Virus record (IMG/VR): IMGVR_UViG_3300045944_000376
Location: 1-43,663 of that record
Direction: 5' to 3' (one strand)
DNA length: 43,663 nucleotides
Source: a virus
The notes below the pieces were generated by a model, which was not told where the DNA came from, searched no databases, and was given only the letters and a program-made list of their open reading frames with translations. Every line of letters begins with the position of its first letter. Position 1 is the first letter of the stretch. Positions 1 to 43,663 of the stretch are shown here, piece after piece. The position numbers and the translations under genes were made by a program.

Positions 1-207
1 CACTTCTGGAAGGTGTGCTACGAAGTGGAATTTGGGCGGCCGGCGCCATTGCCGTACATTATCGAGCATGATCCGGTGGCGCATGGCCCAGGTCTCCTCC
101 AGGTGCCGCACTGGCCCGACATCCCGGATAAAAGCGCGGTGCTGCGGGAGGAAGAAACCGAGGCCGAAGACGCCCCGGAGGAGCTGACCAGCCCGGAGGA
201 GGGATGA
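1..207 (+). CDS. tas: Tas-like protein, C-terminal 68 residues (continuation from the right end)
   Basis: The frame is open from base 1 (HFWKVCYEVEFG...) with no start of its own that would make a sensible gene; the first ATG is internal at 13. It follows in frame from the right-hand end, which stops at ...VKMFLEHF. Both ends carry CACTTC, so the joint may be a plain abutment (HFHF) or a 6-bp terminal duplication (HF). The segment holds an aromatic, Pro-rich stretch (GRPAPLPYIIEHD) and a very acidic tail (EEETEAEDAPEE). The stop overlaps the ATG of the next gene (ATGA), so the two should be co-translated. Confidence 0.72.
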   Translation, partial: HFWKVCYEVEFGRPAPLPYIIEHDPVAHGPGLLQVPHWPDIPDKSAVLREEETEAEDAPEELTSPEEG

Positions 208-644
208 CGATGAACTATGAGGAAGAGATGAATCGTCAGTGGCATGATGGATATGAACACTATTATAGCCGTAATCAGCATCACAAAATGCGCCAACATC
301 CTCAATGTCCCTTTATCTTACGCAATGGACACCAATGCAAAAACACCATCTCCTATCGTCAGAAGACGTGTTACACGCATCGCCATATGCTCAGTATCCC
401 GTTTTTGAATGAGGAAGCGTTACACAGGGAGATACAAAGGCAATGGGACATCTTACCGCTGGAACAGCAGCACTTTGTGTGTGAGCTTTATAAGATGATG
501 CATCTGTTTGACCCATGGCATTCGGAGCATACGAGCTTCTTGCTCGAAATCCTGCTGGCCCATTGGAACGACGAGCATTTTCGAAAGCGGATCTTCTCCA
601 GGCCTTCTGTAGCGACAGATCCCGAGAAGCGCGGCCCCTGGTAA
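204..644 (+). CDS. Small Cys/His (zinc-finger-like) protein between the Tas-like gene and the guide array
   Basis: 146 residues, start ATG overlapping the stop of the Tas-like gene. A candidate metal site is Cys35, Cys45, Cys56, His59 (C-x9-C-x10-C-x2-H) in a context rich in basic and aromatic residues (GHQCKN, TCYTHR). The rest is helical, with an HWNDEHFRKR segment near the C terminus. I do not recognise a named family. Base composition is visibly more AT-rich than its neighbours, which suggests separate acquisition. The last codons (PEKRGPW) run through the first conserved motif of the array and stop at 642-644, so gene and array overlap. Its position inside the locus makes it a candidate accessory protein of the system. 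That is inference from location only. Confidence 0.65.
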   Translation: MTMNYEEEMNRQWHDGYEHYYSRNQHHKMRQHPQCPFILRNGHQCKNTISYRQKTCYTHRHMLSIPFLNEEALHREIQRQWDILPLEQQHFVCELYKMMHLFDPWHSEHTSFLLEILLAHWNDEHFRKRIFSRPSVATDPEKRGPW

Positions 645-898
645 AGAGCCACCCAATATGTGCGAGCGCGGCCCTTGAAGATGAGCCACCCACAAGAAAA
701 GAGCGCGGCCCAGCAAGACGAGACGCCCTTAAAGCAGGCGCGCGGCCCTAAGGTTTGAGACCCCCATTAATGGAGAGCGCGGCCCAACAGTAAGAGACAC
801 CCCAGCCATTCGAGCGCGGCCTTTTGGATTGCGGCACCCCTACCGAGCGCGCGCGGCCCACCTTGGCGAGACACCCAAGAAGTAAGAGCGCCGGTCGC
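627..898 (+). repeat. TIGR-like guide array: seven 37-bp units, each with two short repeats and two short spacers, plus a degenerate end
   Basis: GCGCGGCCC occurs at 629, 666, 703, 740, 777, 814 (last base T) and 851, and a degenerate GCGCCGGTC lies at 888: eight positions exactly 37 bp apart. Seventeen bases into each unit a second 9-mer recurs, consensus GAGACACCC, at 646, 683, 720, 757, 794, 831 and 868. The motif GCGCGGCCC is usually preceded by GA. Between the motifs lie variable stretches of 8 nt (ctggtaaa, ttgaagat, agcaagac, taaggttt, aacagtaa, tttggatt, accttggc) and about 9 nt (aatatgtgc, acaagaaaa, ttaaagcag, attaatgga, cagccattc, ctaccgagc, aagaagtaa). Repeats and spacers this short with two alternating motifs do not fit CRISPR. 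They fit the edge-repeat/spacer A/loop-repeat/spacer B organisation of TIGR arrays. Transcription is probably rightward from the upstream genes. Confidence 0.82.
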
Positions 899-907
899 TG
901 ACAGAAC

Positions 908-944
908 CACCGCCCCGGCACCAGGGGGGGCACCAGGGGCGGTG
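908..944 (+). other. GC-rich stem-loop just after the guide array
   Basis: CACCGCCCC at 908-916 pairs perfectly with GGGGCGGTG at 936-944 around a 19-nt loop that itself repeats GCACCAGGGG. No T-tract follows. It begins in the last degenerate unit of the array, so it could protect or end the array transcript. That role is inference. Confidence 0.5.
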
Positions 945-2912: not shown

Positions 2913-4208
2913 TCAGGGCGCCTTCGAGAGAGGAGCGAACAAGTTCATTTGTGCCGTATTCTTGTCGTGCTGCTCAAGGCAATGGGGAGAAGCCCACAGT
3001 CGTTCCCGGTGCTGCTGGGATGTGCCATCGATATTGCCGTATCCGCCACGGAGGAATCCTGGGGCATACCATTCATGCACCGTCCAGCCTGCAGCCTCGA
3101 GGGCTGTGTGTTCGGTATCATAGCCAGCCAGCACGATGCGTGTCTGCGGCTGCTGTGCTGCGTGCAGGCACCAATCGCGTACCCGCTGCTGCATATTGTC
3201 CTGGTCGATGCGGTAGAGATCTCTGTCGCGTTCCGTGCAACTGTAGGGCGGATCGAGAAACACGCCGCAGTACCCGTCTCCTTGCCGGACTGACAAGGTC
3301 AGGCGTGCGCCATCGGTGCAGATACGCTGCCAGTCGCCAGCCACGATGCGGACATGCCGGAGCCTGGCGGCAAGCCAGCGAAACCAGCGGAGGAGTTCTG
3401 GCATCGTCACCGGATGAAATTCTGCTTCCTCGCTGACGCCAGGCTCCCTGAGTCCGGCATGGTTGACGCCCATGCCATTATCGCTCAGGTGCGGCAGGTC
3501 GCGCGAGACGCCAGGATCCATGAGCTGTGGCCGGTTGACGCCCATGCCATTATCGCTCAGGTGCGGCCGGTTGCGCGAGACGCCAGGCTCCCTGAGCTGT
3601 GGCCGGTTGATGCCCCTGCCATTATCGCTCAGTTGCGGCAGGTTGCGCCAGATGCCAGGCTCCCGGAGCTGTGGCCGGTTGGCGCCATTGCCATTAGTGA
3701 TCAGGGGCGGCCGGTTGCGCGAGATGCCAGGCTGGCCGGTTTTGACGATGCGCCCGGTGACTGGGTCGGCAGTCCATGGGCCTCTGCCGTGGAACGGTCC
3801 GATCTGGCAGCATACGCCATAGAGCCACCAGCCCGCCATCTGCGGATCACACCAGGTTGCACTCCCAGCAAGACGTTCGTGGACAGCTTCCGTATACCAC
3901 TTGAGCACGGCTATCTGCCGTGCCTGTTTGTCTAGCTCTGAGACTGGCCACGACGCAGCCTCTGCCGTAGCCTCTGGATGCCATTGTATAGCCCGCCAGG
4001 CATTGACCACAAACCCATCCAGATCATTGATCGTTTCACTGTAGTACGTTCTATTGCACGGATGCGGCCGCTCCAGGAGCACTGCCATCGAGCCAGCGAA
4101 GGGCTCGACGTAATGCATGACGTCCCCCAGCAGGCTCCAGACCAGTGGTGCTGCCTGGGATTTTCCGCCATACCAGGGGAACGGCGCTTTGTTCAGCCGT
4201 TCCAGCAT
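2913..4208 (-). CDS. dam: D12-class DNA adenine methyltransferase with a 24-residue repeat insert
   Basis: 431 residues. The order of motifs is that of Dam/D12 N6-adenine methyltransferases: PFPWYGGK near residue 9 and EPFAGSMAV at 35-43 (AdoMet binding), then the catalytic DPPY at 319-322. Between the target-recognition region and DPPY, residues 161-256 hold four 24-residue repeats of the type GVSRNRPHLSDNGMGVNRPQLREP, then a fifth start (GVSEE). The C terminus (GFLRGGYGNID, RERLWAS) resumes the family fold. It may protect phage DNA from host restriction or mark it for packaging. Placement between the tailspike and the secreted BNR protein, outside the replication genes, is unusual. The repeat insert is probably a disordered or solenoid linker of unknown role. 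Confidence 0.85.
   Translation of the reverse strand: MLERLNKAPFPWYGGKSQAAPLVWSLLGDVMHYVEPFAGSMAVLLERPHPCNRTYYSETINDLDGFVVNAWRAIQWHPEATAEAASWPVSELDKQARQIAVLKWYTEAVHERLAGSATWCDPQMAGWWLYGVCCQIGPFHGRGPWTADPVTGRIVKTGQPGISRNRPPLITNGNGANRPQLREPGIWRNLPQLSDNGRGINRPQLREPGVSRNRPHLSDNGMGVNRPQLMDPGVSRDLPHLSDNGMGVNHAGLREPGVSEEAEFHPVTMPELLRWFRWLAARLRHVRIVAGDWQRICTDGARLTLSVRQGDGYCGVFLDPPYSCTERDRDLYRIDQDNMQQRVRDWCLHAAQQPQTRIVLAGYDTEHTALEAAGWTVHEWYAPGFLRGGYGNIDGTSQQHRERLWASPHCLEQHDKNTAQMNLFAPLSKAP
3441..3728 (-). repeat. Four in-frame 72-bp tandem repeats inside the Dam gene
   Basis: The sequence ggttgacgcc starts at 3461 and again at 3533, 72 bp apart, and the pattern continues. Translated, it is four copies of a 24-residue unit rich in Asn, Arg, Pro and Gly. 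Copies differ at several positions, so this is an aged rather than a fresh duplication. Copy number could vary between related phages by recombination. Confidence 0.85.
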
Positions 4209-35768: not shown

Positions 35769-36024
35769 TCCCGAGACCCTTCGCACCCCACTCGACCCAC
35801 ACCTGATCTACCTCCCGGCGGAAATCGCGGCCTACCTGCGGATCTCGATCCGCACGCTCCAAAGCTGGCGCCACCGCGGCGGCGGGCCGCCATTTCGCAA
35901 ATACGGCGCCCTAGTACGGTATCAGGGGAGCGCCGTGTTGCAGTGGGACGCCTCACGGAGCCGGCGCACCACCTCCGACACCCCGCCGCTGCAGGTGATC
36001 CAGAGAAAGGGACGACGTGACTAA
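35761..36024 (+). CDS. Excisionase / MerR-like helix-turn-helix protein
   Basis: 87 residues from ATG at 35761, inside the end of the Cro-like gene, with AAGGTG upstream. LPAEIAAYLRISIRTLQSWRHRGGGPPFRKYGALVRYQGSAVLQWDASR is the HTH_17 winged-helix pattern of phage excisionases (LTxxEAAxxLxIsxxTLxxWRxxGxGPPFxKxGxxVRYxxxxLxxW). It may direct excision with the integrase or act as an early DNA-binding regulator. It sits before the primase gene. Confidence 0.85.
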   Translation: MPDPETLRTPLDPHLIYLPAEIAAYLRISIRTLQSWRHRGGGPPFRKYGALVRYQGSAVLQWDASRSRRTTSDTPPLQVIQRKGRRD

Positions 36025-37462
36025 ATGGACTGGGCCGCCTCCCTCCGCAGAAGCGACACTGGGGGAATGGGCTGTATGGTATGTCGCGCAAGGCTTTGCG
36101 GTGCTGCCGTGCTGGGGAAAAAAACCCGTGGGCAAGATCGGGTTGCATCATGCCTCCACCTTACAGGAGCAAGTAGCTTCCTGGTGGCAGCAGTGGCCAG
36201 CGGCAAATATCGGCCTCGCCGTCACGCCGGGACGTATCGTGCTAGATATCGACCCGCGCCATGGGGGCGACGCCAGTTTGCAGGAGCTGGAACGCGCGCA
36301 TGGCGCACTGCCTGAAACACTCACCGCGCTCACCGGGGGCGGGGGCACGCATTACTGGTTCGCCGTCCAGGCCGGGAGCGTCCGCAACAAGGCGCCGCTT
36401 GGCGAAGGCATCGACGTGCAAGGTCCGGGAAGTTATGTGATCGCGCCGCCCTCCATCCACCTGGATACCGGCCAGAGCTACCGCTGGGATGCCGGCATGG
36501 GGCCCGAGAGTTGCGACATAGAGCCGGCTCCTGCCTGGCTCCTGACCCTGCTCACAAGCCAGCAGCGTCGCACACAGCGCGATGCAGAGCGCACGGGAAA
36601 CGGCACCATCCCAGAAGGACGGCGCGAAACAACGCTGCTGGCGCTGGCCGGAGCCATGCAGCGGCAGGGGGCATCGCCTGCCGCTATCCGGAGTGCCCTG
36701 GAAGCGGAAAACGCGCGCTGTGTCCCACCCCTGGACGATGCAGACCTGGACCGCATGACGCGGAGCGTCGGACGGTACACGCCGGCGCCAACGTTGTACG
36801 TCGGCGCAGAAGGACTGACACCCATACAAAAATTGTGGATGCATGGGGACAACGCCACACCACAGAGTCTACAGATTTTGCGCGCCTACTGGCATGGCGA
36901 CATTACCGGCGCTTGGCGCAGCGGCAAAGAACCTGCGACCTGGTGGATACGACTAAGCGGGCAGGAGATCTGTCTGGGAAGCACCATGCAACTCCAGGAT
37001 CAAAAGCATATCCGCGCCTGTTTCCTCGAAGCCACCGGACACATGCCGCCGGTGATCCCGCCCAAACGGGCGGAAGAATGGGATGCCTGTCTCAGAGCCC
37101 TCGCAGCCCTCGCCCTGGCACGCGACGAACCGGAAAATGACCCCGCCAACCAGGCCAGAGAACTCGTGAAGAGTTATCTGGACAGCAAACCATATAAGTT
37201 CCAGATGGATTTCGATGCCGAGGAGTGGCAACAGTGCGCCCGGAATAATCAGCCGTTTCGCTGTGAAGGCAGTGTCTATATCCACTGCCGGCAATGGCAT
37301 ATCGACTATCTGCGTCATTTTACGGATGTCACGTACGCTGAGGCCCTGGCGATGCTCCGTAAGTTGGGGACGAATACGCTGATCCGCCTAATGCACCCAA
37401 ACACCAGTCGGTACTACTGGAAAATCCCGGGAGAAGGCTTTGCCGATGTCGACGACAACTAG
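36017..37462 (+). CDS. Bifunctional primase-polymerase (prim-pol)
   Basis: 481 residues from GTG at 36017 with AAAGGGA upstream, overlapping the previous gene by 8 bases. The N-terminal domain carries the prim-pol motifs: WYVAQGFAVLPCWGKKP, the catalytic VLDIDPRHGG (Asp77, Asp79), GGGGTHYWF with His112, and GPGSYVIAPPSIH. A helical PriCT-like part follows (RRETTLLALAGAMQRQGASPAAIRSALEAENA). The last 200 residues are unrecognised (WWIRLSGQEICLGSTMQLQDQKHIRACFLEATGH...). It starts phage DNA replication. A hexameric helicase fusion is not present. Confidence 0.88.
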   Translation: MTKWTGPPPSAEATLGEWAVWYVAQGFAVLPCWGKKPVGKIGLHHASTLQEQVASWWQQWPAANIGLAVTPGRIVLDIDPRHGGDASLQELERAHGALPETLTALTGGGGTHYWFAVQAGSVRNKAPLGEGIDVQGPGSYVIAPPSIHLDTGQSYRWDAGMGPESCDIEPAPAWLLTLLTSQQRRTQRDAERTGNGTIPEGRRETTLLALAGAMQRQGASPAAIRSALEAENARCVPPLDDADLDRMTRSVGRYTPAPTLYVGAEGLTPIQKLWMHGDNATPQSLQILRAYWHGDITGAWRSGKEPATWWIRLSGQEICLGSTMQLQDQKHIRACFLEATGHMPPVIPPKRAEEWDACLRALAALALARDEPENDPANQARELVKSYLDSKPYKFQMDFDAEEWQQCARNNQPFRCEGSVYIHCRQWHIDYLRHFTDVTYAEALAMLRKLGTNTLIRLMHPNTSRYYWKIPGEGFADVDDN

Positions 37463-37676
37463 ACCATTCGCGCGCGCACACAAGAGAAATTGCTGGGAAA
37501 AAGGCTACATTTCTACACAAGTTCTATAACAGACATAATATCATATACTTATGGGTATATAGCATGACTACACAAGACTACTTCAAAAACTGCACGCGTC
37601 TCGCGCGAGGTCACGCGCGAACGACGTCAAATCTGCTATACGCGCGCGTATATATCTTTCCATGAAAGGATCCACG
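37463..37676. other. AT-rich and palindrome-rich gap between primase and helicase; origin candidate
   Basis: A 214-bp gap with an AT-rich half (about 37500-37560) followed by CG-alternating palindromes: CTCGCGCGAG (37600-37609), and the perfect 16-bp TATACGCGCGCGTATA (37637-37652). AAAGGA at 37665 serves the next gene. The mix of melting-prone DNA and palindromes beside the primase suggests a replication origin or a second operator. Confidence 0.45.
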
Positions 37677-39260
37677 ATGCCGGACTTCGCCTGTATATTT
37701 GGTCCCCCTGGCACCGGGAAAACGTCCAGTCTGACCAAAGCTATTGCCCATTATGTCCAGGAGTATGGGGCAGACAAAATCCTGGCCACCTCATTTACCA
37801 AAGCTGGCGCGCATGAACTCGCCGGACGGAATGCCTCGGTGCTCGCCGACCACATGCACGGCACCCTGCATGCGCTGTGTTATCGGGCCCTGGACGGTCC
37901 AAAGATTGCCGAAACACAAACTGAAGCAGGAGGCTGGAATCATACGTATCCCCATTATGCCATCCCGCAGAACAGCTTCCAGGCATCGTCACTCGCGGGC
38001 AACCCTGGCGACGAACCTCTGTCTGCCTCGCTGGGACAACACCGACTGCACGACTATACCGTGTGGCGTAGCGTGACCTGTGGCGAGGGCGTCCTGCCGG
38101 ACCTGCTAGAAGATTTCGTCCGCTGTTGGGAACAGTGGAAAGACCAGATGGGTCTGCGGGACTTTACGGACCTGCTGCTCGATGCGCTGCAGGTCATGCC
38201 GCGGGCTCCGGGCAATCCCGCCATGCTGGTGGCAGATGAAGCCCAGGATTTTACACCCCTCCAATGGCGCCTCCTCCGGCAATGGTCCAGGTCGTGTGCG
38301 CGCTGGATTGTCGCAGGCGACGATGACCAGGCCCTCTATACCTGGTGTGGGGCATCGCCACAGCCGATGCTGGAGGCTTCCGAGCACGAAAAAATCATTC
38401 TTGAGCAGTCCTACCGGCTCCCAGAAACGATTTATGCCCATGCCGTGACCTATCTCTCCCGCATCATGAAGCGTCAGGACAAACGCTGGGCACCACGGCC
38501 GCACCCCGGATCCTTGACGTCTCTGTCCCTCCCGCTGGGACAAGTCGCACAGCAAGCCATCCTGGACACGTTGCGTGACGCCTACGGTGCAGAGCACAAC
38601 TGCATGGCCCTTGCTCCCTGCTCGTATATGCTTGAGGGGACCCTCAGGTGGCTGCGTGCGGAGGGGATTCCTTTTGCCAACCCGTGGCGGCTCAGACGGG
38701 GTGATTGGAATCCCCTGGTTCCACGGGGGCGCGGTATCAGCTCCCGGACGCGCCTGCTGGATTTTTTACGGCCACCAGAGCGCCTATGGACCTGGCCGGA
38801 ACTTCACACCTGGCTGCCCATCATCCGGGAGAAGGGCACACTCAACCCCAGGCGATGGAAAAGCCTGCTAGCCCTCCACGAAGACGAGCAGCGGGTGTGC
38901 ACGCTGGAGGAATGTCAGGGCCTGTTTGTCCCCGAAGCCTTGAGCGGCGCTCTCTCGGGAAACCTGGAGTGGCTCACAACGCGTCTGCGGGCCGACAAAG
39001 CCCGCGGTATGGCCTATCCCATACGCATCGTCGAACGCTTCGGGCGGTCTGCGTTAGCGCGCGACCCAAGGATTTTTATCGGCACATGTCATAGCGTCAA
39101 AGGCGCTGAAGCGGACACCGTGGTGCTGTCTACGGCGCTGTCCCGGCGCTTTGCCGAGGCGCGTGCCTGGGGAGGCGAGAGCGCGGATGCCGTGGAACGC
39201 ATGCTCTATGTGGGCACAACCCGCGCGAAGGAACGCCTTCTCGTGACCGATCAACCCTGA
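37677..39260 (+). CDS. UvrD-like superfamily 1 helicase
   Basis: 527 residues from ATG at 37677 (MPDFACIFGPPGTGKT), with AAAGGA upstream; an ATG at 37662 would add five residues. Motif I is GPPGTGKT at 9-16, Ia TSFTKAGAHEL at 38-48, II VADEAQD at 185-191, III GDDDQALYTW at 214-223, and IV LEQSYRLP. Motif V is near TCHSVKGAEADTVVL and motif VI is LYVGTTRAKERLLV. This is the UvrD/Rep order with short insert domains. It would unwind DNA in phage replication or recombination. It is separated from the primase by the palindrome-rich gap. Confidence 0.92.
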   Translation: MPDFACIFGPPGTGKTSSLTKAIAHYVQEYGADKILATSFTKAGAHELAGRNASVLADHMHGTLHALCYRALDGPKIAETQTEAGGWNHTYPHYAIPQNSFQASSLAGNPGDEPLSASLGQHRLHDYTVWRSVTCGEGVLPDLLEDFVRCWEQWKDQMGLRDFTDLLLDALQVMPRAPGNPAMLVADEAQDFTPLQWRLLRQWSRSCARWIVAGDDDQALYTWCGASPQPMLEASEHEKIILEQSYRLPETIYAHAVTYLSRIMKRQDKRWAPRPHPGSLTSLSLPLGQVAQQAILDTLRDAYGAEHNCMALAPCSYMLEGTLRWLRAEGIPFANPWRLRRGDWNPLVPRGRGISSRTRLLDFLRPPERLWTWPELHTWLPIIREKGTLNPRRWKSLLALHEDEQRVCTLEECQGLFVPEALSGALSGNLEWLTTRLRADKARGMAYPIRIVERFGRSALARDPRIFIGTCHSVKGAEADTVVLSTALSRRFAEARAWGGESADAVERMLYVGTTRAKERLLVTDQP

Positions 39261-40009: not shown

Positions 40010-41899
40010 ATGCGTGTGAGCGAGCTGGTGTTAACGTCCCACCAGGAGACCGCGCTGGCGTGGGTTGTCGAGCGCCTGGAAGCGGGACAACGCCTGCTCG
40101 CCTTGCGCGGGCTGGCGGGCACGGGCAAGAGTACCCTGATGCCGGTGTTGCGTGCCCGCCTGGCCGCTCTCGGCCACGTGGTGAAGATTGGCGCCCCGAC
40201 GCATCGCGCCGCCATGGTGCTGAAACGGAAGGGCGTGCGTGACGCGGATACTCTGCACGCGCATGCGTTAGCGCCGTATTTTCTGCCGGAGTATGCCGTG
40301 GCGATGCGCTACCTGGGCGAAGAAGTGCGGACACGGGAGGAGGTCGATGACCTGGTGGACGCTCTGGGTCGGCCCCTCCTGCTGGCCTCCATCCTTCGGG
40401 ACGATGCCTCCGCCTGGCAGACCCTGAAGCGGACGAACATCCTGTATGGCGCGCGCAAGGCGTTGGCCAGTGTTGGGCTGCAAGGCAAACAGTATTTTGA
40501 TGGGTTTGGCCCGAAGCTGGGCGAAGGCTGCCTGATCATTGATGAAGCCTCGATGGTCGGGCGAGAGCAATTGGATTTGTGTCTGCAGGCCTTTCAGCAA
40601 GTGGTTCTCGTGGGCGATCCCGGGCAGCTTCCGCCCGTGAATGATGTGAGCGTGCTGGCAGAAACCGAGGGGTTTGACCTCACCGAGTTGCACCGGCAGG
40701 CGGCGGATTCTTCGATCGTGCAACTGGCCTATGCGGCCCGGCGGGGGGAAGCCTTCTGGAAAGAGACGTTCACGGGAGACGTGATTGCCGACACCGGGTG
40801 GCTCGATCCCCATCTCCTCCTGACGCAGCCGCTGCTGGTGTGGCGCAATGGGACCCGGATCGCGTGTACGGAGACCATCCGAGCCGCACTCGGCTACCCG
40901 TCACGCCTCCTCCAGCCTGGCGAGCCCCTGCTCTGCCGGGCGACATCGCCCGCCGATCGGGAGGAGGGTTTCTATAACAATGCGCAATTTCGTGTCGTCG
41001 CCGTATCCGGGAACAACCCGCGCCAGGTCACGCTGCAGGCGGACGGGGCGGAGGAGACCCAGGACGTGTACGTCCACCTCGAAGACTGGCATGGGGAGCG
41101 GGTGGACCCGGAGGCCGTACCGTTTCGGTTGGGCTATTGCTTGACGGCGCACACGGCGCAAGGCGGCGAATGGCCGTTTGTGGCGATTTCCCGGCCCGAG
41201 TTGGTGGCCTATCACGACCGCTGCCAGCGCTACCGCACGATGGACGAAATGGCCCAGTGGACCTATACCGCGATCACCCGGGCTCGGACCCAGATCGCCT
41301 TTCTCACGTCACACACGTTTGAGCGGCCGGCCTCTGTGCCGGTTTCGCAAGGAGTTTTGTCTATGCCCCCCACGTTTAGCGCTCCGTCTGCGGACCCCCA
41401 GGAGCCGGAGCCGGCTCCGGTGTCTGGCGATATTCCCGAGACGCCCGTTTCGCCGCCTGTGGCGGCCTTTATTGCGTCCATGCCTCCAGGGCCTGTGCTG
41501 CCTGAGGGGGCACTCTTACACCAATTCTGCGCTACGCTAGAGGCCAAAATGACCCAGTGGGTTGCCGACCAGTCGGTCTCCACGATGAAGGCACTCGATG
41601 CGGTGCTCGGGAAGATGGTCGAGTGTCTGGATAAAGTCGCGGTGGCCAACGACCATGCCCAGTATCAACTATCGCATACGCTGGAAAAGCTGTTAGGCCA
41701 GGGGGTGCAACTGCGTGGTGCGCCGTATACGGTGGAAATCCGGGCGCAGACCCCGCACGGGTTTCAGGTGGCGTTTCGCCTGACCAAAGAATCGTCGGCA
41801 GACCTGGCGCAAGCGACGGACGCGCTGGTGAGCTGGTTGGCTGGTTCCGGCTATGGCGTCACCATGCCCCACACCGACCCTGATGGGCTGCCATTTTAG
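40010..41899 (+). CDS. RecD-like superfamily 1B helicase
   Basis: 629 residues. Motif I is GLAGTGKST at 34-42, motif II LIIDEASM at 175-182, motif III GDPGQLPP at 202-209, motif IV region LHRQA, and motif VI region YTAITRARTQIAFL. The C-terminal 2A domain has LTAHTAQGGEW, the UvrD_C_2 signature. After about residue 450 a Pro-rich linker leads to a separate helical domain (SMPPGPVLPEGALLHQFCATLEAKMTQWVAD...). The AGGAG site is one base from ATG 40010 and five from GTG 40016, so the true start may be the GTG, two codons in. It would act on ends or forks during phage replication. Confidence 0.9.
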   Translation: MRVSELVLTSHQETALAWVVERLEAGQRLLALRGLAGTGKSTLMPVLRARLAALGHVVKIGAPTHRAAMVLKRKGVRDADTLHAHALAPYFLPEYAVAMRYLGEEVRTREEVDDLVDALGRPLLLASILRDDASAWQTLKRTNILYGARKALASVGLQGKQYFDGFGPKLGEGCLIIDEASMVGREQLDLCLQAFQQVVLVGDPGQLPPVNDVSVLAETEGFDLTELHRQAADSSIVQLAYAARRGEAFWKETFTGDVIADTGWLDPHLLLTQPLLVWRNGTRIACTETIRAALGYPSRLLQPGEPLLCRATSPADREEGFYNNAQFRVVAVSGNNPRQVTLQADGAEETQDVYVHLEDWHGERVDPEAVPFRLGYCLTAHTAQGGEWPFVAISRPELVAYHDRCQRYRTMDEMAQWTYTAITRARTQIAFLTSHTFERPASVPVSQGVLSMPPTFSAPSADPQEPEPAPVSGDIPETPVSPPVAAFIASMPPGPVLPEGALLHQFCATLEAKMTQWVADQSVSTMKALDAVLGKMVECLDKVAVANDHAQYQLSHTLEKLLGQGVQLRGAPYTVEIRAQTPHGFQVAFRLTKESSADLAQATDALVSWLAGSGYGVTMPHTDPDGLPF

Positions 41900-42322: not shown

Positions 42323-42523
42323 ATGCCCCCGCGGCGTCGTGCCCCTGTCCGGCCACCCACCCTGGATGCGCCGTCGGTTCGCCTGTGGCTGGCCGATTCC
42401 TATCGCTGGACATGTGCCGAGTGCCCCTGCACCAACAACTTGCGCGGGTTGCTGCGGGAGGTGTGCGTCAACTGCCGGCACATCCATCCCCCCCCGCAGA
42501 AGGAGCCCCCGCATGTCTCCTGA
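42323..42523 (+). CDS. Small zinc-ribbon protein
   Basis: 66 residues with AGGAGGAG upstream. WTCAECPCTNNLRGLLREVCVNCRH gives a CxxC-x19-CxxC-type metal ribbon; the N terminus is basic and Pro-rich (MPPRRRAPVRPPTLDAPS). It sits in front of the VRR-NUC gene and overlaps its start by 11 bases, so a DNA- or nuclease-linked role is possible. Confidence 0.72.
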   Translation: MPPRRRAPVRPPTLDAPSVRLWLADSYRWTCAECPCTNNLRGLLREVCVNCRHIHPPPQKEPPHVS

Positions 42524-42950
42524 CCCGATTCACCGCCTGCTCGGCCCCGCGTGGGACTGGACCGTCTCCCGTGTCGCCTGCGGCACACGGACAGCCACGC
42601 ATGCCACGTGGGACACGACGCTGGTGACCTGTCCACAGTGTCGGCAGGGACAGGCACCCGCGTACCTGTTTTCCAACGAGAAAGCCCTGGCTGACGCGGT
42701 GCAGCAACTCGCACGCTCGCAGGACTGGCTGTACTACCACACGCATGACAGTCGACACAGTCCGGCAGGCTATCCCGACCTGACCCTGGTCAAGGGTACC
42801 AGGCTCGTGTTCGCCGAACTGAAGATGCCCGGCCAGAGGCCCACCGTGGCGCAACGACACTGGCTCGACGCCTTGCGGCAGGTTGCGACCGTGGAGGTGT
42901 CCCTGTGGACGCCGGAGGACTGGCCCACCATCGAGGAGACGTTGCAGTGA
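42513..42950 (+). CDS. VRR-NUC family nuclease
   Basis: 145 residues from ATG at 42513, with AAGGAG upstream. A Cys pair near the N terminus (VTCPQCRQG) precedes the VRR-NUC core: NEKALADAVQQLARSQDWLYYHTHDSRHSPAGYPDLTLVKGTRLVFAELKMPGQRPTVAQRHWLDALRQV. The core carries the GxPDL and ELK catalytic motifs. Such enzymes are PD-(D/E)XK nucleases that cut branched DNA or act at junctions in phage replication. The stop overlaps the GTG of the Tas-like gene, so the two are translationally coupled. This raises the question whether it could serve the guide system as a nuclease in trans. Confidence 0.88.
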   Translation: MSPDPIHRLLGPAWDWTVSRVACGTRTATHATWDTTLVTCPQCRQGQAPAYLFSNEKALADAVQQLARSQDWLYYHTHDSRHSPAGYPDLTLVKGTRLVFAELKMPGQRPTVAQRHWLDALRQVATVEVSLWTPEDWPTIEETLQ

Positions 42951-43663
42951 CCGACAGCACCATGACTCTGCTCACCGGCCGCTTGAACCGCAGTATGCTG
43001 GCGCACGCTGCCGACCTGTCGCGCGAGGAAATCCGCGGCCTGGTCGATAGCTACTACCAGGCGCAGGAGTTGCGCAAGGCCGGCGCCAATCAGCGTCGCG
43101 CCGTCGCCCAGGGACGCGATGCCAACCCGCTACTCGATTATGTCGTGGATCACCTGGAGCACCTGGAGAAAGATATCCAGCGCATCATGGACGTGGCCAC
43201 CGATGCCCACATCCCGACCCGCTGGGCAAAAAGTCACGTCGGCATTGGCCCGACGCTGGCTGCCGGCCTCTGGGCGCATATTGACGTGCGGATTGCGAAG
43301 ACGGGTTCGGCGGTCTGGCGCTTCGCCGGTCTGGACCCCACGGTGAAGTGGGAGAAAGGCCAGCGGCGTCCCTGGAACGCAAAACTCAAAACTTTATCAT
43401 GGAAAGTCGGTGAGAGCTGGAAGAAGTTCTCCAATCACCCTCATGCCTCGCTTTATTCGCAACTCTACCGCGAGCGCAAGGCGCTGGAAGTGGCGCGCAG
43501 TGAGTCGGGGATGCAAGCCGAGACCGCCGCGGCACTCCTGGCGACGAAACGCTGGAAGGCGGGGACCGTGGCCGCCAAAGCCTACGCCGAGGGCAAGCTG
43601 CCGGCGGGACAGCTTGACGCCCGCGCCAGACGGTATGCGGTCAAGATGTTCTTAGAGCACTTC
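42947..43663 (+). CDS. tas: Tas-like (IS110/Nop-related) RNA-guide-binding protein, N-terminal 239 residues; continues at base 1
   Basis: The frame runs off the window end on a codon boundary and appears to continue at bases 1-207, giving 307 residues. The GTG start at 42947 overlaps the stop of the VRR-NUC gene, which suggests translational coupling. Residues 60-95 are helical (possible coiled coil). Residues 97-110 form a helix-hairpin-helix-like segment (HVGIGPTLAAGLWA), followed by AGLDP at 127-131 and a basic NAKLKTLSWK segment at 144-153. This order is that of the C-terminal half of IS110-family transposases, which is structurally related to Nop domains of box C/D RNPs. The N-terminal RuvC-like DEDD domain of IS110 is absent, and no HNH or RuvC motif is visible. 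With the 37-bp two-spacer array about 400 bp downstream of its stop, the best reading is a nuclease-free Tas protein of a TIGR-Tas system. The alternative is an orphan IS110-derived protein. Confidence 0.8.
   Translation, partial: MTDSTMTLLTGRLNRSMLAHAADLSREEIRGLVDSYYQAQELRKAGANQRRAVAQGRDANPLLDYVVDHLEHLEKDIQRIMDVATDAHIPTRWAKSHVGIGPTLAAGLWAHIDVRIAKTGSAVWRFAGLDPTVKWEKGQRRPWNAKLKTLSWKVGESWKKFSNHPHASLYSQLYRERKALEVARSESGMQAETAAALLATKRWKAGTVAAKAYAEGKLPAGQLDARARRYAVKMFLEHF

What the first reader, a model, noticed from the sequence alone, without database searches (positions are those of the whole stretch)
42947..43663. Nuclease-free Tas-like protein coupled to a VRR-NUC nuclease
The protein keeps the helix-hairpin-helix and AGLDP region of IS110/Nop-type proteins but has no RuvC, DEDD or HNH part in its 307 residues. 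Its GTG start overlaps the stop of a VRR-NUC nuclease gene. If it is guide-loaded, it could bind DNA without cutting (regulation, or protection of phage DNA), or recruit the VRR-NUC enzyme in trans. The coupling of start and stop codons argues for balanced synthesis.
Basis: partly seen in the sequence, partly recalled or inferred. Interest (0 to 1): 0.9.

Follow-up and report, generated by a model that had tools for sequence, protein, structure and literature searches.

The report
Phage TIGR-TasA guide system, nuclease-free
A bacterial virus carries a small protein with no DNA-cutting part, together with a bank of seven short paired guides; it is a TIGR-TasA system, a known kind that probably grips chosen DNA without cutting it, and the nuclease gene next to it is most likely a neighbour from the phage's own DNA-repair genes rather than its partner.

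Summary
An ORF starts at GTG 42947, overlaps the stop of a VRR-NUC gene by four bases (GTGA), and runs across the ends of this virus record: 305 aa once the 6-bp end repeat is collapsed (307 without). It has no RuvC, DEDD or HNH part. Its model is all-helical and matches TasH and TasR structures best, then IS110 transposases, then Nop5.

A TIGR array lies at 627-885, 420 bp downstream: seven units of exactly 37 bp, with two alternating repeats and two variable spacers. Of 178 related loci, 154 have such a period and 145 have it within 1.5 kb of tas. This is a phage TIGR-TasA system (Faure et al. 2025), a known type.

The VRR-NUC coupling is weaker. VRR-NUC lies directly upstream in 5 of 89 Tas lineages, more than chance (expected 0.7), but scattered over the tree. 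None of 8 relatives of this VRR-NUC has tas in its record or an array nearby.

Arrays turn over far faster than the protein, and no self-targets were found. I favour cut-free binding to foreign DNA, with VRR-NUC serving phage recombination. Targets, processing and binding are untested.

The parts
42947..43663 (+). tasA gene, first 239 of 305 codons (Nop-type core; GTG start overlapping the VRR-NUC stop)
7..207 (+). tasA gene, last 66 codons and stop, continued across the record's ends (6-bp end repeat collapsed); ends in an acidic tail
   Evidence: register with relatives' C-termini
627..885 (+). TIGR array: 7 units of 37 bp = edge repeat (consensus GAGCGCGGCCC, 11 nt), spacer A (8 nt), loop repeat (consensus GAGnCaCCC, 9 nt), spacer B (9 nt)
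886..891 (+). truncated last edge repeat (GAGCGC)
907..944 (+). G+C-rich hairpin after the array, possible terminator; no run of T, and folding no better than shuffled sequence
204..644 (+). small ORF (146 aa, unknown) between tasA and the array; its start overlaps the tasA stop (ATGA) and its end runs into the first array unit
42513..42950 (+). VRR-NUC nuclease gene (145 aa from ATG), intact PD-(D/E)XK motif; neighbour, probably not a dedicated partner
42323..42523 (+). small zinc-finger-like ORF; kept next to VRR-NUC in L250, a phage record without tas
40010..41899 (+). RecD/Dda-like helicase, same gene cluster
37662..39260 (+). UvrD-like helicase, same gene cluster
36017..37462 (+). primase-polymerase (Prim-Pol) of the replication module

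Best explanation
The locus is a phage TIGR-TasA system. Shown here: a nuclease-free Tas protein of the TasR/TasH fold, an adjacent dual-repeat TIGR array of seven two-spacer units on the same strand, and an intact VRR-NUC gene just upstream in the replication/recombination gene cluster. Inferred from the published biochemistry of relatives: the array is transcribed and cut by a host RNase into guide RNAs of about 36-37 nt; a Tas dimer holds each guide by the box C/D-like ends of its two repeats; the two spacers pair with opposite strands of neighbouring half-sites and bend the DNA without cutting it. Inferred more weakly: the bound complex acts as a roadblock to transcription or replication of competing mobile elements or of host genes, since guides turn over quickly and none matches the phage's own genome. 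The VRR-NUC gene most likely serves phage recombination (junction resolution) and is a module neighbour, not the cutter of TasA.
For: Tas identity: profile of 17 relatives matches TasR 9mty at E = 2.8e-23 and TasH at 1.7e-12, IS621 at 4e-4. Direct sequence hit to Salicola phage CGphi29, the published TasH locus, E = 2e-6 (locus named in PMC12045711). Foldseek's top ten are all TasH or TasR. VIA Z: TasH 16.8, TasR 15.8, IS110 type about 12.5, Nop5 7.0.

Array: 7 units of exactly 37 bp; both repeats end in CCC and begin with GA(G). Pattern of edge + spacer + loop: 2 hits, 0 in 100 shuffles. 154 of 178 relatives have a 34-38-bp period, 138 at exactly 36; 145 within 1.5 kb of tas.

Nuclease-free: all-helical 239-aa model.

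External targets: TasA pairs of >=98% identity share a median of 41% of spacers; 95-98%, 15%; 80-90%, 6%. No self-target in the window and none in 142 loci with 1405 units.

VRR-NUC independent. Standalone VRR-NUC proteins are dimeric and cleave four-way junctions (PMC4103454).
Against: No RNA data: transcription, processing and guide loading are not shown. No real target was found; a viral-collection search with one true spacer pair gave 24 matches against 40 for a mismatched pair, that is, noise. Own-genome search was complete only for the window; relatives were searched only in their flanks. VRR-NUC next to tas is commoner than chance (5 lineages against 0.7 expected, P about 4e-4 under a uniform-placement null), so some functional link is not excluded. 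The hairpin after the array has no T run. The window's Tas sits on a long branch, so it may have diverged in function.
Confidence: 0.75

Rival explanations
1. TasA finds the target and the co-translated VRR-NUC nuclease is recruited in trans to cut it, making a two-gene RNA-guided nuclease.
For: GTGA overlap; the VRR-NUC active-site motif is intact; VRR-NUC lies directly upstream in 5 of 89 lineages against 0.7 expected, once more with overlapping stop and start (L028).
Against: The neighbours are scattered over the Tas tree (6 changes for 7 rows); 84 of 89 lineages lack a detected adjacent VRR-NUC; 0 of 8 relatives of this VRR-NUC have tas in their records or an array in their flanks, and L250 keeps the zinc finger-VRR pair without tas; no Tas-VRR fusion was noticed among the Tas ORFs, whose unusually long members were inspected. 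VRR-NUC fits the replication gene cluster on its own.
Confidence: 0.1
2. TasA represses or protects sites in the phage's own genome (self-regulation or shielding).
For: It cannot cut, and it sits in the early/replication module.
Against: Best own-genome matches of the seven spacer pairs have 3-5 mismatches, the same as mismatched pairs; no same-locus target in 142 loci; fast spacer turnover does not fit fixed own targets.
Confidence: 0.1
3. The protein is a decayed IS110-type transposase remnant with no guide function.
For: Weak Pfam match to Transposase_20, E = 0.0066; PHROG 4285 is annotated 'transposase'.
Against: Closer to TasR/TasH than to IS110 by sequence and fold; 17 relatives keep the core conserved; arrays co-occur in 154 of 178 loci.
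Confidence: 0.02
4. TasA helps integration or segregation of the phage, as guided DNA bending for an integrase or with a ParB-like partner (suggested for TasA in PMC12045711).
For: Published speculation and the TasParB operon.
Against: No ParB among the Pfam families listed for upstream neighbours (only 25 of 47 families were shown); spacer turnover argues against a fixed site.
Confidence: 0.06

Closest known systems
TIGR-TasA (e.g. Flavonifractor plautii FpTIGR; Faure et al. 2025, PMC12045711)
   Same: Solo Nop-type Tas protein without nuclease; adjacent array of two alternating short repeats with two short spacers; TIGR loci are frequent in phages
   Different: Unit of 37 rather than 36 bp, edge repeat 11 nt, box C-like end CCC rather than the CCA described for TasR arrays; an upstream VRR-NUC gene, not mentioned in the paper's main text
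TasH of Salicola phage CGphi29 and TasR (9mty)
   Same: Nop-type fold over most of the 239-aa model, dual-repeat array
   Different: Those carry an N-terminal HNH or RuvC nuclease; this one does not
IS110/IS621 bridge-RNA transposases
   Same: RNA-binding fold of the non-catalytic part (Z about 12.5)
   Different: No DEDD catalytic domain here; array of guides rather than one bridge RNA
Archaeal Nop5 box C/D snoRNP
   Same: Nop-type core (Z 7.0)
   Different: No fibrillarin-recruiting part; guides are in a compact array; distant in sequence
Standalone viral/bacterial VRR-NUC nucleases (4qbl, 4qbn, 4qbo)
   Same: The upstream gene product: motif and fold
   Different: Not an RNA-guided enzyme; shown for relatives to cleave four-way junctions

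Membership tests
TIGR-Tas | Nop-domain protein of the Tas family | tested here: met
   Profile E 2.8e-23 to TasR 9mty; Foldseek top ten all TasH/TasR; VIA Z 14.5-16.8
TIGR-Tas | Adjacent array of two alternating 8-12-nt repeats with about 9-nt spacers | tested here: met
   627-885: edge 11 nt, loop 9 nt, spacers 8 and 9 nt, seven 37-bp units; same period in 154 of 178 relatives
TIGR-Tas | Box C/D-like ends shared by edge and loop repeats | tested here: met
   Both consensus repeats begin GA(G) and end CCC; relatives mostly GA(G)...CCR. Contact with the protein not tested
TIGR-Tas | Array ends with a truncated edge repeat and a rho-independent terminator | tested here: inconclusive
   Truncated edge GAGCGC present; hairpin without T run, fold z-score -0.44
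TIGR-Tas | Array processed into guide RNAs of about 36 nt bound by Tas | not testable with these tools
   Needs RNA sequencing
TIGR-Tas | Tandem-spacer binding of opposite DNA strands | not testable with these tools
   Needs biochemistry; no target found
TasA subtype | No HNH or RuvC nuclease domain | tested here: met
   All-helical model of 239 residues; Pfam shows only a weak IS110 C-terminal type match; residues 240-305 not modelled, but the family's C-terminus aligns with the TasR C-terminus
IS110 transposase | N-terminal DEDD catalytic domain | tested here: not met
   Model starts directly with the helical region; no beta strands
VRR-NUC (upstream gene) | PD-(D/E)XK core with conserved D, E-x-K, Q | tested here: met
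   D89, E102, K104, Q114 invariant in 16 sequences; Pfam E 5.5e-6; profile match to 4qbo, E 1.8e-10
Conserved VRR-NUC/Tas pair (hypothetical two-gene system) | The two genes co-occur across relatives of both | tested here: not met
   5 of 89 Tas lineages; 0 of 8 VRR-NUC relatives

The most novel reading that the evidence does not exclude
In this and a few other phage lineages TasA and a VRR-NUC nuclease form a two-gene RNA-guided nuclease: TasA with a tandem-spacer guide bends and unwinds the target, and the structure-specific VRR-NUC enzyme cuts the branched DNA so exposed, a trans version of TasR/TasH.
Probability: 0.1. Interest if true: 0.85.

Novelty: new member of a known kind. Interest (0 to 1): 0.42.

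Why it matters
TasA is described as the commonest TIGR effector, yet its function and natural targets are open questions in the founding paper (PMC12045711). This locus adds a phage example with a complete array in a phage genome whose ends join. The survey adds two testable points: guides turn over much faster than the TasA protein, which points to changing outside targets, and VRR-NUC genes recur beside tasA more than chance but not as a conserved pair. If the trans-nuclease reading were right, it would be a new split design of RNA-guided DNA cutting.

Tried and rejected
Self-targets: seven spacer pairs against the whole window in three geometries; 3-5 mismatches, no better than mismatched pairs. 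That script sliced the spacers one base early, so each pair was tested with one box C base included and its last base left out; the pooled test, which also covers the window, used consensus-defined spacers and found no same-locus match.

Targets in relatives: 1405 units against 1.7 Mb of flanks; about 20 exact 16-mer matches for neighbouring spacer pairs against 6-11 for the spaced-pair controls of the two opposite-strand geometries, but evenly split between true and false pairings and inflated by near-duplicate loci, so taken as no signal.

Targets in the viral collection: 24 true against 40 control matches.

PF08774 over whole records first gave 5 of 22 and 6 of 71 records, missing several; a home-made VRR profile was used instead.

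The 36/72-bp repeat at 3435-3733 was considered as a second TIGR array and rejected: its 'spacers' do not vary and it lies in a coding frame.

The careful tree did not finish; the quick tree was used. VIA-align rows from unrelated helical proteins (Z 7 and below) were not interpreted; Nop5 at 7.0 is no stronger than those on its own.

Full report
1. What is there. The ORF begins at GTG 42947, about eight bases after a GAGGAG sequence, and overlaps the stop of the preceding gene by four bases. It runs off the window's end. The window is an entire virus record of 43663 bases whose ends share 6 bp. Joining the ends keeps the frame open: 307 aa, or 305 aa with the 6 bp collapsed. Only the collapsed form keeps register with the C-termini of relatives, so I take 305 aa and a circular or terminally repeated genome. 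The stop (205-207) overlaps the next ORF by ATGA, so tas is packed tightly on both sides. The rest of the record is an ordinary tailed phage: terminase, portal, major head and tape measure proteins on the minus strand, and Prim-Pol, UvrD-like helicase, RecD/Dda-like helicase, VRR-NUC and tas on the plus strand.

2. The protein. Pfam gives only a weak IS110 C-terminal match (E = 0.0066). A profile of 17 family members gives TasR (9mty) at 2.8e-23, TasH at 1.7e-12 and IS621 at 4e-4. The only hits among 50,697 phage records are the two records of Salicola phage CGphi29, the published TasH locus. The model (239 aa, pLDDT 88.8) is all helix. Foldseek ranks TasH and TasR in the first ten places, then IS110 types; VIA-align gives TasH Z 16.8 over 191 residues (rmsd 3.3), TasR 15.8 over 174 (2.7), IS110 types about 12.5, Nop5 7.0.

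3. The array. At 627-885 lie seven units of exactly 37 bp, each an 11-nt edge repeat (GAGCGCGGCCC), an 8-nt spacer, a 9-nt loop repeat (GAGnCaCCC) and a 9-nt spacer, followed by a truncated edge repeat. Lag-37 identity is 0.586 against 0.273 +/- 0.03 in shuffles, and this is the strongest such period in the window. These are the features that define a TIGR array in PMC12045711. A hairpin follows, but without a T run.

4. Relatives. The scans brought 178 distinct tas loci, mostly viral contigs, some in bacterial and archaeal assemblies. In 154 the best 34-38-bp period exceeds a cut-off above the 95% point of control periods; 138 are exactly 36 bp; 145 lie within 1.5 kb of tas. A few of these best periods are other repeats, for example in L010, L022 and L246, but those three also have a TIGR-type array beside tas. 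The association of protein and array is therefore general.

5. The VRR-NUC gene. Its product has the invariant D, E-x-K and Q residues, a PD-(D/E)XK fold and its family profile matches standalone VRR-NUC structures. Such proteins are dimers that cleave four-way junctions (PMC4103454). Is it coupled to tas? Forward test: a VRR profile finds the family within 6 kb of tas in 14 of 89 lineages (tas grouped at 70% identity), directly upstream on the same strand in 5, where 0.7 would be expected if placed at random (P = 4e-4). The null ignores that phage replication genes cluster, so the excess is an upper bound. L028 also shows a stop-start overlap. On the tree, 7 rows with an upstream VRR-NUC need 6 changes, so the neighbourhood arose or was lost repeatedly. 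Reverse test: 8 relatives of this VRR-NUC (36-52% identity) were found; none has a tas gene in its record or an array in its flanks, and L250 keeps the small zinc finger gene next to VRR-NUC with no tas. The same tas profile, run locally, found tas in all 249 tas loci, which serves as its positive control. Conclusion: a recurrent neighbour, not a conserved partner. Other upstream neighbours include HNH, DUF968, YqaJ and PDDEXK_1 proteins, as expected for phage early regions.

6. How it probably works. Shown in published relatives: 36-nt tigRNAs bound by a Tas dimer, pairing with both strands of a target and bending it; a TasA was itself shown to bind 36-nt RNA. Inferred here: the same for this protein, without cutting. 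Which targets? Spacers change much faster than the protein: pairs of TasA at 98% identity or more share a median of 41% of spacers, 15% at 95-98%, 12% at 90-95%, 6% at 80-90%. No own-genome or own-locus targets were found above chance. Fixed internal targets would preserve guides, so outside, changing targets (other phages, plasmids, host loci) are more likely; blocking transcription or replication is the simplest action for a non-cutting binder, as the founding paper also suggests. I could not identify any target.

7. Novelty. The kind is known. New here are this member, the VRR-NUC neighbourhood statistics, and the array turnover. I could not check whether this contig is in the supplementary tables of PMC12045711.

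Noticed in passing
L023:7923-10076: This TasA ORF is 718 aa because an intein sits in it: Hint_2 and LAGLIDADG_3 domains, N-terminal Cys and C-terminal HNC, inserted in the conserved LKRLC/WK stretch.
   Followed up: partly
142 parsed arrays, e.g. L134/L135, L157/L163: TIGR arrays of phages with nearly identical TasA share only a minority of spacers (median 41% at >=98% identity), so guides turn over quickly. The mechanism of spacer gain is unknown.
   Followed up: partly
L022:5500-5740: A 12-bp minisatellite whose minus strand reads GAGCGAGTCCCN, close to the edge repeat GAGCGAGCC of the true array beside tas in the same locus. L246 has a similar one built on GACCGAA. Possibly collapsed or expanded repeat material.
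   Followed up: no
window 3435-3733 (in ORF 2913-4208, minus strand): Four copies of a 72-bp tandem repeat (87% alike) inside an ORF whose N-terminus matches D12-class adenine methyltransferases.
   Followed up: partly
L102:4816-5480 and L006:7830-7980: TIGR arrays that stay open as reading frames (SEPxxxRVP-type peptides), and in L006 the array joins in frame with the start of tas. Probably a by-product of the 36-bp period.
   Followed up: no
L010:7296-7470: GC-rich 5-bp-based repeat (GCCGC/GCNNC type) just upstream of the gene before tas.
   Followed up: no
L044, L069, L072, L148, L149, L157, L163 (upstream of tas): A DUF968 (HNH-like) protein is the recurrent upstream neighbour in one group of seven tas loci.
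   Followed up: no
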